Source: Eisenbergiella porci (GTDB lineage Bacteria; Bacillota; Clostridia; Lachnospirales; Lachnospiraceae). Taken from it: a DNA stretch of 64,000 bases. The notes under the pieces were generated by a model. That model ran no database searches and was not told the origin of the DNA. It saw only the letters and a list, made by a program, of their open reading frames with translations. A program made the translations under genes and the position numbers. Position 1 is the first letter of the stretch. Every line of letters begins with the position of its first letter. The stretch is from assembly GCF_009696275.1 (NCBI RefSeq), contig NZ_VUMI01000004.1, positions 1 through 64,000 of the forward strand. Reading direction: 5' to 3'. Of the stretch, positions 16,431 through 62,103 are shown one piece after another.

Positions 16431-16464
16431 AAAAAATTTTGAAAATTTCAGAACCTGCTCCAGG

Positions 16465-16733
16465 GTTACTGTTCACACCCCATTTGGGTCCCTGCCACCG
16501 CCGCCCTATGGCCGTGCCTCTGTGTCCACCAGCCGGCTTAGATGTTGTTTCTTAGAGGGCACGCTTTCGCTCGATTAAAAACGCAACGGTACTAACGCCG
16601 CAAAAAACGCGGCGTAAGGACCGGCGTTTTTAGACGACCCTTACAGAAAACAACATCTAGGCCGGCTGGTGGACACAGAGGCGCGGCCATAGGACGGCGG
16701 TGGCAGGGACCCAAATGGGGTGTGAACAGTAAC
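16465..16733. mobile_element. 269-bp palindromic MITE with 8-bp target duplication
   Basis: The element starts GTTACTGTTCACA and ends TGTGAACAGTAAC. Its outer arms, about 86 bases each (16465-16550 and roughly 16647-16733), are nearly perfect inverted repeats. The centre carries a smaller GC-rich hairpin (ACGCCGC/GCGGCGT). The element is flanked by a perfect 8-bp direct repeat GCTCCAGG at 16457-16464 and 16734-16741. No transposase is encoded; the short ORF seen across it is chance. It sits between the divergent glnN and pyrG promoters without touching either. The transposase that mobilises it is not in this window. Confidence 0.85.
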
Positions 16734-16762
16734 GCTCCAGGAAAAATTTTTGAAAAAAAGTC

Positions 16763-46233: not shown

Positions 46234-46655
46234 GTGCGCCACGAAACAAGGGTGCATTTGTTATGCGGGTGGAAACCCCGTTCGGTAAGGTGCAAGCCAC
46301 ACCATCGGAAGCGAGTCTTGGGATTGTACTGGTAACGATACAGTCTAAGCGTAGACAGTAAGGCAGTAGAGTAGCCATTGAGCACCGAAATAAACTTAGA
46401 TCCAGCAGGCCGACGCTGTTATGTGAGCGGAAGGTAAGACATCAGTTTATCGATATGGCGAGATTTCGGATGCTGCTGCGGTGTCGGAGAACCTATCATG
46501 CTGTACAAGAACAATGCATCAACGTGGGAGAGCCAGCACTCCCCGGCAGAGAAAACTGCCGGTATGCCGTATAACCGCAAGGGAGGAAAGCAAACAGGGT
46601 GAGGGCAGTCGGACAGCCGGATAGTACCGGAGAAAGTGGTGAAAGCCGCTGGAGT
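46234..46655 (+). mobile_element. 5' part of a group II intron, 3' end deleted
   Basis: Begins GTGCGCC, the conserved 5' end of bacterial group II introns, exactly after codon 8 of tnpA. It continues with domain-I-like sequence (ATGCGGGTGGAAACCCCG, GGTAAGGTGCAAGCC and several stems). No reverse transcriptase ORF, domain V or domain VI follows. Near 46655 the sequence changes to an RBS and start of another gene. The intron is therefore truncated and cannot splice. The exact 3' breakpoint is uncertain. Confidence 0.7.
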
Positions 46656-51388: not shown

Positions 51389-51475
51389 GACGGGACAGAC
51401 AATTCCGGCTGTCAGGCCGGACAGGGGACAGGGCTTTCTGCAACTATACTGCAATCAGATTAAAGAAAAGGAAGC

Positions 51476-51502
51476 GTTACTGGCCACGGAGCGAACAGTA
51501 AC
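51476..51502. mobile_element. 27-bp minimal palindromic element with target duplication
   Basis: GTTACTGGCCACG...CGAACAGTAAC has the same ends as the MITE at 16465 but only 27 bases in all. It is flanked by AAGGAAGC (51468-51475) and AAGGAATC (51503-51510), a 7 of 8 match. Probably an internally deleted copy or an excision footprint. Confidence 0.6.
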
Positions 51503-51573
51503 AAGGAATCATAAAATAATAGAATCTTTTGCCTGGCATTCTTCCATTTTGTTTCTGATATGATAGAATAAAA

Positions 51574-59439: not shown

Positions 59440-59467
59440 GTAACAGTCCGGTTGTCTGAACTGTTAT
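59440..59467. repeat. Degenerate GTAAC-type short palindrome
   Basis: GTAACAGTCCGG...CTGAACTGTTAT, 28 bases, resembles the short members of the family; no convincing target duplication. A similar 28-base sequence occurs at 48958-48985. Confidence 0.4.
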
Positions 59468-59521
59468 GGAGGTTGGTGTTGCCCGAACGCCTCTTTTTCT
59501 ATAGAATAATAGAAAAATAAT

Positions 59522-59670
59522 GTGACTGTTCAGCAGGTCAGCGCATTTAGCTGCGCAGGCCAACGCTTTGCGTTGACCGTAAGAAAGTGATTCAAGAGTG
59601 CTAAAATCCATCGCCAAAGGCGATTTAGGATGGATTTTAGCAGTAACTGTGAGGGGTACTGAACAGTTAC
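59522..59670. mobile_element. 149-bp palindromic MITE with 8-bp target duplication
   Basis: Ends GTGACTGTTCAG (59522-59533) and CTGAACAGTTAC (59659-59670) are inverted with one mismatch. A perfect 8-bp direct repeat AAAATAAT flanks it (59514-59521 and 59671-59678). Inside are two further hairpins, one pairing CTAAAATCCA with TGGATTTTAG around a TCGCC/GGCGA stem. It lies just upstream of the alpha/beta hydrolase gene, and its right edge is followed by another short palindrome (about 59679-59703, TAACTGT/ACAGTTA). Confidence 0.85.
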
Positions 59671-59729
59671 AAAATAATTAACTGTGGACTGAGCGGACAG
59701 TTACAAAAAATGAAAAAGAGGGATCAGAC

Positions 59730-60646: not shown

Positions 60647-61174
60647 TTGACGCGTGAAGATGAAATATTCAGAAAAATAGAACAGGGGGACAGCGGCGGG
60701 CTGGATGAGCTGGTGAGCCTTTATTACCCTGAAATACTGCGGTACTGCAGATGGCATACGCCGGATCAGGCAACGGCGGAGGATGCGGCGCAGGAAACCT
60801 TTCTAAAGGCGGTGCGGCATTTTAACCGGTATGTACATAAAGGCAGGTTCAAGGCCTTTCTTTATCAGATTGCCGCCAATACCTGTGTGGACATGTGGCG
60901 GAAAAAGAAACCGGAGGCCCTGCCGGAGGAGCTGGTATATACGGAACGGGAATTTGACCGGGCCGAGCAGGAGGCAGATCTCGCCCGGCTGGTGGAACGG
61001 CTGCCCGAAAAGCAGAGGGAAATCGTGCTGCTCCGGTTTGCCCAGGATCTTACGCTGCGGGAAACCGCCGATGTCCTGGGGCTTCCGCTGCGGACGGTAC
61101 AATCGCGGCTGCGCGCCGCATTGAAGTACCTTAAGAAAATTCTGAAGGAAGGAGGAGAGACAGATGCAAAATAA
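60647..61174 (+). CDS. ECF-type RNA polymerase sigma factor
   Basis: 175 residues from TTG 60647 (AGGAGGAAAAAC upstream). Region 2 (LVSLYYPEILRYCRWHTPDQ, AEDAAQETFLKAV) and region 4 (LPEKQREIVLLRFAQDLTLR, RTVQSRLRAALKYLKK) are complete, with no regions 1 or 3, so it is an ECF sigma. Its last codons overlap the start of the membrane-protein gene that follows by 11 bases, the usual arrangement for a sigma/anti-sigma pair. ABC-2 exporter genes follow. The unit probably responds to envelope or antimicrobial stress, but the signal is not evident. Confidence 0.92.
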   Translation: MTREDEIFRKIEQGDSGGLDELVSLYYPEILRYCRWHTPDQATAEDAAQETFLKAVRHFNRYVHKGRFKAFLYQIAANTCVDMWRKKKPEALPEELVYTEREFDRAEQEADLARLVERLPEKQREIVLLRFAQDLTLRETADVLGLPLRTVQSRLRAALKYLKKILKEGGETDAK

Positions 61175-61919
61175 CTGGGAAAAAGAGCTGGGAAGGGCAT
61201 TGAAGGAGAGCGTCGGGGAACCGGACGCCGAACGGATGGCCATGACAGCGGAAGCGCTGCATAAAGCTTACCGGGGAAAACACAGGGAGCGAATCGGTTT
61301 TACAGGCTTTCTGCTGCGGCAGATCCGGTTTAACGGCTGGAAAATATGGCTGATGCAGGGTGTGCTTCTTGGCCTGCTGCGCTTAGTACTGACCTTTACT
61401 TATGGCAGCCTGAAGGTGGTGAATCAGGAAAAAATCCCGCTGCTTCTTTGCTGTATATCCGTTCTTATCGTGATGACGGCGGTACCGTTTTTATGGCGTT
61501 CCCTGCGTTATCGGATGTTTGAAACTGAAATCGCTACGCGGATGTCCATGGGCAGGCTGACAGGAGCATGGCTTGTTCTTGCGGGGCTGGGGGATGCGGC
61601 AGTTCTTTCCTGCGTATTTTGGTACACGGTGCGCAGTACCGCCATAAGCCGGAGCGGCGCGGTATTATATTTGCTTGTGCCGTTTCTTCTTGCGGCGGCG
61701 GGGCTATGCTATCTGTTGGGCCATGTGAGGCCGGAACGGTTTTGTGCGGGCTGTGCGGGAATGTGCGCTGTGCTTCTTCTTCTTTTTCTGGCTGCCGGCG
61801 AGTATTGCCCGGTGGTGTTCCGGCAGAACTTCAGCCTTGGCTGGGGCGGTATCTGTCTCTGCCTGCTGGCCTTTGGGGCACGGCAATGCCGCTTTATCCA
61901 AAAAAGGTATGCGCTGTAA
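61164..61919 (+). CDS. Membrane protein, probable anti-sigma partner
   Basis: 251 residues. A 50-residue cytoplasmic N-terminus (LGRALKESVGEPDAERMAMT) precedes about six membrane segments. The overlap with the sigma gene and topology suggest that it restrains the sigma factor, though no zinc anti-sigma motif is present. The stop codon is supplied by an inserted palindromic element: reading across the target duplication without the element would give a C-terminus RYAFCGMDL instead of the present RYAL. Loss of five residues is probably tolerated. Confidence 0.75.
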   Translation: MQNNWEKELGRALKESVGEPDAERMAMTAEALHKAYRGKHRERIGFTGFLLRQIRFNGWKIWLMQGVLLGLLRLVLTFTYGSLKVVNQEKIPLLLCCISVLIVMTAVPFLWRSLRYRMFETEIATRMSMGRLTGAWLVLAGLGDAAVLSCVFWYTVRSTAISRSGAVLYLLVPFLLAAAGLCYLLGHVRPERFCAGCAGMCAVLLLLFLAAGEYCPVVFRQNFSLGWGGICLCLLAFGARQCRFIQKRYAL

Positions 61920-62051
61920 CCGTTCAGGCCGGTCTGTGCATTCACTGCACAGACCGTGAGAAAACGTGGAGGCATCAGGCGTCCGCCCCTCGCCGAAGGC
62001 GACTCTAATGGGCGGATGCAGTAACAGTTCGGCCGAAGGCTGAACTGTTAC
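61916..62051. mobile_element. 136-bp palindromic MITE inserted in the end of the anti-sigma gene
   Basis: Left end GTAACCGTTCAG (61916-61927), right end CTGAACTGTTAC (62040-62051). Flanks TATGCGCT (61908-61915) and TATGCGTT (62052-62059) agree at 7 of 8 bases, as expected for an aged target duplication. Internal stems include GGTCTGTGCA...TGCACAGACC. It separates the anti-sigma gene from the ABC ATPase gene within one operon, so it is transcribed and could act as an RNA hairpin. Confidence 0.82.
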
Positions 62052-62103
62052 TATGCGTTCTGTGGTATGGATTTATAAGCGGTAAACGGAAAGGAGAATG
62101 GAA

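What the first reader, a model, noticed from the sequence alone, without database searches (positions are those of the whole stretch)
16465..16733. Family of palindromic MITEs with GTWACNGTTC ends and 8-bp target duplications
Four copies have flanking direct repeats that can be read directly: 269 bp at 16465 (GCTCCAGG, 8/8), 149 bp at 59522 (AAAATAAT, 8/8), 136 bp at 61916 (TATGCGCT/TATGCGTT, 7/8) and 27 bp at 51476 (AAGGAAGC/AAGGAATC, 7/8). Interiors differ but ends agree, and none encodes protein. I know no named element with these ends. The consistent 8-bp duplication points to one transposase acting in trans.
Basis: partly seen in the sequence, partly recalled or inferred. Interest (0 to 1): 0.75.

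Follow-up and report, generated by a model that had tools for sequence, protein, structure and literature searches.

The report
IS66-driven hairpin elements, unknown structured core
Short gene-less DNA hairpins scattered through a gut-type bacterial genome are mobile elements apparently moved by the enzyme of a known transposon family (IS66), and the longest one carries a conserved folded core that is widespread in this bacterial family and that I could not match to any catalogued element.

Summary
Of 29 genome copies found by the end pattern, 22 are flanked by perfect 8-bp repeats, 5 by 7/8 repeats and 2 by none. The window copies read as stated. There are two unrelated kinds. Copies at 59522 and 61916, with a third subfamily elsewhere, share one covarying interior. 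The 27-bp piece at 51476 matches that third subfamily's terminal hairpin at 25/27 bases. The 269-bp element at 16465 is different.

The missing transposase is most likely IS66 family, ISBst12-like. Copies with these ends and 8-bp repeats exist in a congener and in another family member, and a relic with one near-matching end lies in this genome. The published ISBst12-group element ISDge4 has very similar ends, so the ends are not new.

The 269-bp element holds an 84-nt core of a separate high-copy family: 123 of 299 sampled family genomes, and no match outside the family in a 299-genome phylum sample. The core covaries strongly, has a GNRA hairpin on one strand and no Rfam match, and sits inside palindromes with about five end types and 8-10-bp repeats. 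Its function is unknown. That core is the novel part.

The parts
16457..16464 (.). left target-site duplication GCTCCAGG
16465..16733 (.). 269-bp hairpin MITE; IS66/ISBst12-type ends GTTACTGTTCACACCC, arms 83/86 complementary
16557..16640 (-). conserved structured core (model R1); GNRA hairpin on the - strand
16734..16741 (.). right target-site duplication GCTCCAGG
59514..59521 (.). left TSD AAAATAAT
59522..59670 (+). 149-bp MITE, subfamily B (ends GTGACTGTTCAGCA / GTAACTGTTCAGTA), with an 18-bp expansion in hairpin 1
59671..59678 (.). right TSD AAAATAAT
61908..61915 (.). left TSD TATGCGCT
61916..62051 (+). 136-bp MITE, subfamily A; its first bases GTAA supply the stop codon of the ORF 61164-61919
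62052..62059 (.). right TSD TATGCGTT (7/8)
51468..51475 (.). left flanking repeat AAGGAAGC
51476..51502 (.). 27-bp solo terminal hairpin, 25/27 identical to the right end of subfamily C elements elsewhere in the genome
   Evidence: compared by eye
51503..51510 (.). right flanking repeat AAGGAATC (7/8)

Best explanation
These are non-autonomous miniature elements moved in trans by single-ORF IS66-family transposases of the ISBst12 type. The transposase recognises the GTWACWGTTC terminal inverted repeats and inserts the element with an 8-bp staggered cut, giving the 8-bp duplications (inferred from the shared ends and duplications; no transposition was assayed). Subfamilies A, B and C are one such family, with three hairpins inside. 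The 269-bp element at 16465 is a second kind: a long palindrome that has ISBst12-type ends but encloses a conserved folded core. That core is shared by many hairpins across Lachnospiraceae that carry other ends as well, so the core appears to travel with more than one transposase system (inferred; the other transposases were not identified). The arms are probably kept complementary by template switching during replication, since their mismatches show no strand preference. The core is held by selection as a single-stranded fold, RNA or ssDNA, most likely of the minus strand, which carries the GNRA loop.
For: TSDs 22/29 exact, 5/29 at 7/8. Partners: congener G005 L255, a 507-aa transposase (PF03050 E 1.7e-17) between GCAACAGTTCAGAC and GTAACAGTTCAGAC ends, with a palindromic miniature element with the same ends next to it; TAATTGGA stands left of the IS, between the two and after the miniature element. 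G116 L257, a 558-aa transposase, 2358 bp, ends GTTACTGTTCACACCCTATT (19/20 equal to the 16465 end), TSD GCCGGAAT 8/8. Inward end pairs (at most 1 mismatch per end, 700-3300 bp apart) occur in 7 of 41 IS66 loci, against a mean of 0.15 and maximum of 1 in 60 shuffled motifs. In genome G063 all 7 core loci examined match that genome's IS66 26-bp end at 21-25/26, against at most 16/26 in 33 core loci of other genomes. Own genome: IS66 relic on contig C140 with one end GTAACTGTTTAGGACCCC (1 mismatch to the motif). Published ISDge4. No element at the orthologous site in congener G012 (aligned by eye). Core: 96.0% of cells paired, 207 double-changed cells against 56.4 in shuffles, 0/500; GNRA loop in 59/62; minus strand folds more stably in 81/116. 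Arms: wobble-type mismatches 73 versus 79. Exact TSD of 8-10 bp plus IR in 20/193 copies against 0, 0, 0 in controls.
Against: No intact IS66 element with both ends was found in the window's own draft genome. Of the 7 IS66 loci with an inward end pair, only L255 and L257 show an 8-bp repeat; L258, L259, L262 and L281 do not, and L260 is cut by the contig end. In L255 an extra C lies between the IS right end and the repeat, so the exact 8/8 register holds for IS plus miniature element together. NCBIfam's IS66 model scores 130, below its 180 cut-off. Only 7/193 core copies carry ISBst12-type ends with a TSD of at least 7/8; most copies show no TSD, and at least 2 of the 20 are palindromic artefacts. 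The strand of the core is not settled by wobble pairs: 40 G-U against 9 A-C on the minus-strand structure, but one pair that this structure leaves out has 33 A-C cells, and the plus-strand structure also shows more G-U than A-C, 41 to 17. G-U pairs in the folds number 216 (+) and 232 (-). Transposition and transcription were not tested.
Confidence: 0.85

Rival explanations
1. The elements are chromosomal structured RNA genes or terminators, not mobile; the flanking repeats are coincidence.
For: Interiors covary and fold strongly. The core has a GNRA loop on one strand.
Against: Exact 8-bp repeats in 22/29 copies, an orthologous site without the element (by eye), a copy nested in another, and ends shared with IS66 elements. 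Core copies show no preference for gene orientation: 24 and 20 tandem, 9 convergent, 9 divergent, 10 inside ORFs, of the 72 of 116 copies with usable flanks.
Confidence: 0.05
2. A different transposase family with 8-bp duplications moves them, and the IS66 copies with similar ends are themselves passengers or chance.
For: No complete IS66 copy with both ends in this genome. Four of 7 IS66 end pairs lack an 8-bp repeat. The core family also uses ends with 9-bp repeats from unidentified transposases.
Against: 7 of 41 IS66 loci carry inward pairs of these ends against 0.15 in shuffles, two with 8-bp repeats. In G063 the element ends match the resident IS66 end over 26 bp. ISDge4 transposed experimentally with similar ends and an 8-bp repeat (PMC12898284, passages).
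Confidence: 0.08
3. The variable arms of the core family come from insertion of the core into pre-existing palindromes (terminators or MITEs), rather than from fast evolution of the arms.
For: About five end types with 8-10-bp repeats around one core. In G098 near-identical cores have different arms.
Against: In G098 most arms look like diverged versions of one sequence that stay complementary (by eye). Only the 16465 element's arms were searched for elsewhere in its genome: they gave one solo arm on C71 at 90% and no core-less palindrome. Other arms were not searched.
Confidence: 0.3

Closest known systems
ISDge4 / ISBst12 group of the IS66 family (PMC12898284, passages)
   Same: Terminal repeats GTGACTACTCAGCA / GTAACTGCTCAGCA (each subfamily B end equals 12 of 14 bases of one of them), 8-bp duplication, single transposase ORF
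   Different: It codes for its transposase; the window elements are 27-269 bp, code for nothing and are palindromic. The 16465 ends match it at only 9 of 14
Bacterial MITEs and repeats with conserved folds such as bcr1, ERIC or Correia elements (recalled, no call)
   Same: Short, intergenic, high copy, foldable, mobilised in trans
   Different: From memory they have other ends and duplication lengths; none that I recall has ISBst12 ends, hypervariable long arms or this core
Template-switch maintenance of hairpins (PMC8794818, search listing and start of abstract only)
   Same: Would explain compensatory changes in long stems without selection for each pair
   Different: From the part seen, it concerns RNA hairpins and replication in general, not this element

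Membership tests
MITE of the IS66 family, ISBst12 group | 8-bp target duplication | tested here: met
   22/29 exact, 5/29 at 7/8, 2/29 none
MITE of the IS66 family, ISBst12 group | Terminal repeats shared with an autonomous IS66 element | tested here: met
   L255, L257; G063 L259 against 7/7 core loci examined; published ISDge4
MITE of the IS66 family, ISBst12 group | Intact autonomous element in the same genome | tested here: not met
   Own genome gives 7 PF03050 matches, none with both ends; a C140 relic with one near-matching end and a stop codon inside the match. Draft assembly, so absence is weak.
MITE of the IS66 family, ISBst12 group | Partner transposase carries the IS66 catalytic domain and is a single long ORF | tested here: met
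   L255 transposase PF03050 E 1.7e-17; L255 507 aa, L257 558 aa; L259 581 aa plus a 100-aa upstream ORF. NCBIfam NF033517 below cut-off. L257 and L259 were found by similarity to the L255 protein, not scanned against Pfam.
MITE of the IS66 family, ISBst12 group | No transposase inside the element | tested here: met
   Elements are 27-269 bp, too short for a transposase gene
MITE of the IS66 family, ISBst12 group | Mobilisation in trans demonstrated | not testable with these tools
   Needs a bench assay
A known Rfam RNA family (for the 16465 core) | Match at gathering score | tested here: not met
   No gathering-score match at the elements in the window or at the core in 17 relative loci. At relaxed E-values only sub-threshold hits: miRNA- and sRNA-type models on the 16465 hairpin, and MIR1144 on both strands of the L035 hairpin at 49.3 and 47.8 bits, gathering 90

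The most novel reading that the evidence does not exclude
The centre of the 269-bp element is a previously undescribed, largely Lachnospiraceae-specific mobile structured nucleic acid: a folded core with a GNRA hairpin on one strand, present in about two fifths of sampled genera. It has hitched itself to at least two transposase systems by sitting in the middle of long palindromes with exchangeable ends, and its hypervariable arms are homogenised by template switching. If transcribed, it would be a selfish structured RNA spreading independently of any one transposase.
Probability: 0.4. Interest if true: 0.8.

Novelty: new variant of a known kind. Interest (0 to 1): 0.62.

Why it matters
It gives an enzyme family to an unassigned class of bacterial miniature elements, and ties it to a transposon group only recently reported to move (PMC12898284). 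It also exposes a conserved folded core spread through a major gut bacterial family that has no match in the RNA family library. A single core carried by elements with 8-bp and 9-bp duplications would be a natural test of whether miniature elements can switch transposases. The arms offer a natural record of hairpin homogenisation.

Tried and rejected
HOLDH RNA as the identity of the core: recalled, but Rfam finds no match, and the paper found (PMC8191799, passages) concerns a k-turn RNA; rejected.

Pairing single ends 1-12 kb apart in the own genome to find a full transposon: L037-L040 showed no 8-bp duplication (flanks judged by eye). The end list was cut at 100 of 147 places, so this was partial.

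IS66 loci L248-L254 as partners: no inward pair of these ends.

The core as terminator or leader: no gene-orientation bias; not supported.

Long-arm RNA function: mismatches do not favour either strand (98 of 116 copies, those with at least 20 aligned columns; the aligned stretch also takes in part of the core); not supported for the arms.

Wobble pairs as proof of the core's strand: I first counted 40 G-U against 9 A-C. The check shows that this depends on which structure is used, so I dropped it, and lowered the novel case from 0.45 to 0.4.

Papers: IS66+MITE+Lachnospiraceae 0; IS66 family+MITE+palindrom 0; miniature inverted-repeat+IS66+8-bp 0; Lachnospiraceae+structured RNA+motif+transposable 0; Lachnospiraceae+miniature inverted-repeat 3, unrelated by title; IS66+MITEs 13 (passages read in PMC3281130 and PMC3189936, nothing on these ends in the passages shown); IS66+ISBst12 2 (PMC8024623 seen in the listing only); a broader Lachnospiraceae/hairpin search 1, unrelated.

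Full report
What was checked. The window is bases 1-64000 of contig C84 of a 6.1-Mb draft genome of 149 contigs. The genomes' names are withheld.

Is it more than chance? The pattern GTWACNGTTCN{100,130}GAACNGTWAC gives 30 + strand places in the own genome and 0 for the reversed control. Two of the places are one element, so 29 are unique. Their 8-bp flanks are identical in 22, differ by one base in 5 and fail in 2: L352, and L363, where a subfamily C element lies inside the end of a subfamily A element. The single end GTWACWGTTCA occurs 147 times against 10 for its reversed control. The 59522, 16465 and 51476 copies are outside this count because of an end mismatch or their length.

Two kinds of element. 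Copies A (61916), B (59522) and C (elsewhere in the genome) align over their whole length (17 of the copies): a first hairpin with a GCATTTACTGC loop region, a conserved linker, a second hairpin, and a right end that can pair with an internal copy of itself. 10 of 32 predicted pairs show changes on both sides. Subfamily A is spread through the genus: hits confined to the element appear in the listed rows for 10 of 13 genomes, the own one included; the list was cut. The 27-bp piece at 51476 is 25/27 identical to the right terminal hairpin of C (by eye), so it may be a deletion remnant or a minimal mobile palindrome. The 269-bp element at 16465 has an unrelated interior.

The transposase. PF03050 gives 7 matches in the own genome, several near contig ends. 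In congener G005 the locus L255 holds a 507-aa IS66 transposase between GCAACAGTTCAGACGGCCCC and GTAACAGTTCAGACAGCCCA. A palindromic miniature element with the same ends lies next to it, and TAATTGGA occurs left of the IS, between the two, and after the miniature element; an extra C sits at the IS right junction. A search with that protein hit 27 of 200 family genomes. Of 41 IS66 loci scanned, 7 have an inward pair of ends with at most one mismatch each (L255, L257, L258, L259, L260, L262, L281), against a mean of 0.15 and maximum of 1 in 60 shuffled motifs. L255 and L257 (GCCGGAAT) show 8-bp repeats, four do not, and L260 is cut by the contig end. L257 is 2358 bp with one long ORF of 558 aa. 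Its left end equals the 16465 end at 19 of 20 bases. The own genome has an IS66 relic on C140 with one end, GTAACTGTTTAGGACCCC, one mismatch from the motif, and a stop codon inside the match. Pfam gives PF03050 at E 1.7e-17 for the L255 protein; NCBIfam's IS66 model scores 130, under its 180 cut-off. ISDge4, assigned by its authors to the single-ORF ISBst12 group, has ends GTGACTACTCAGCA / GTAACTGCTCAGCA and an 8-bp direct repeat, and was seen to transpose (PMC12898284, passages). Each subfamily B end matches 12 of 14 bases of an ISDge4 end; the 16465 ends match 9 of 14. The ends therefore belong to a known kind.

Insertion evidence. The gene downstream of the 61916 element has orthologues in G005 and G012 at 79-80% identity. 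The G012 locus has no element at the corresponding place (aligned by eye; the upstream part is too diverged for BLAST). G005 was not compared further. In the window the element's GTAA end supplies the stop codon of the ORF 61164-61919.

The core of the 269-bp element. Its middle matches other places in the own genome at 80-93% and 5 of 13 genus genomes, with up to 142 first-look candidates in one, of which 40 were scored. Each copy viewed sits in a hairpin; in many the arms are 95-100% complementary, but mostly unlike those of other copies. The viral collection gave 1 match. A covariance model R1 from 62 sequences finds 123 of 299 family genomes at E up to 1e-4, with at most 13 candidates per genome scored. 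In a phylum sample it finds 4 of 299, all four in the same family. Both searches used stricter filters that lose weak matches.

Structure and strand. On the 62-sequence alignment 96.0% of cells pair, and 207 cells changed on both sides against 56.4 in shuffles (0 of 500); slid controls pair at 23-42%. These counts lean towards the structure because it was derived from the same alignment. On the minus strand a small hairpin has a GNRA loop in 59 of 62 sequences, with seven different GNRA sequences and compensated closing pairs; the script preferred a GNRA reading when several loops were possible. The minus strand folds more stably in 81 of 116 copies. Wobble pairs do not settle the strand: the minus-strand structure has 40 G-U against 9 A-C cells, 18 of the 40 at one pair, but it leaves out a pair with 33 A-C cells, and the plus-strand structure has 41 G-U against 17 A-C. 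The arms show 73 and 79 mismatches of the two wobble types (98 of 116 copies). My reading is a folded core, most likely of the minus strand, inside strand-neutral palindromic arms. Template switching between inverted repeats is a published way to keep hairpin arms alike (PMC8794818, listing and start of abstract); its action here is inferred.

Ends around the core. An end-agnostic search finds an exact duplication of 8-10 bp with terminal repeats of at least 9/12 in 20 of 193 copies (copies too near a locus end were skipped). Three controls with exchanged right flanks give 0, 0 and 0; they could use only copies whose partner had enough flank, a number the script did not print. Two of the 20 (L103, L093) look like palindromic artefacts and L143 is doubtful. 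The end types are GTWACWGTTCA with 8 bp, GGGTGYAGATAA mostly with 9 bp, CACGGAAATCAA with 9 bp, and single cases of TAGGTAATTGC and CAGGAYAAAGGC with 10 bp, plus one GTAATGACTCCG with 8 bp. A directed search for ISBst12-type ends with a TSD of at least 7/8 finds 7 of 193, against a mean of 0.1 in 30 shuffled motifs. In G063 all 7 core loci examined match that genome's IS66 end at 21-25 of 26 bases; 33 loci of other genomes reach at most 16. That IS66 copy itself has no 8-bp repeat. Most core copies show no duplication.

Context. Of 116 core copies, 72 had usable flanks: 10 lie in ORFs; the others lie between tandem (24 and 20), convergent (9) or divergent (9) ORFs (ORFs were called mechanically). 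This gives no support for a terminator or leader role.

Known or new. As miniature elements of the IS66/ISBst12 type, A-D are new members of a known kind. The conserved core with exchangeable ends matches no Rfam family at gathering score (sub-threshold hits), and I found no paper on it in the searches listed under Tried and rejected; most subscription papers are not in that library. I therefore rate the whole a new variant of a known kind, with the core as the part that could be more.

Noticed in passing
window 46272-46493 (+): Group II intron match (RF02005, 145.8 bits).
   Followed up: no
window 59440-59467, 56490, 51574, 48985, 59704: Further lone or decayed end motifs and a 28-bp palindrome with similar ends, without partner or clear duplication (by eye).
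   Followed up: partly
window 61164-61919: The ORF's stop codon is supplied by the GTAA end of the inserted element.
   Followed up: yes
L255 480-2500 (congener G005): An IS66 element and a palindromic miniature element lie side by side at one target, TAATTGGA occurring left of, between and after them.
   Followed up: partly
L026 and L027 (own contigs C145 and C63): Two contigs end in the same long hairpin, so such hairpins probably break the assembly.
   Followed up: no
L312-L321 (G213): Core copies with short arms whose variable bases change in step on both sides, with no visible duplication (by eye).
   Followed up: partly
L363 (own C128): A subfamily C element is inserted in the terminal repeat of a subfamily A element.
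   Followed up: partly
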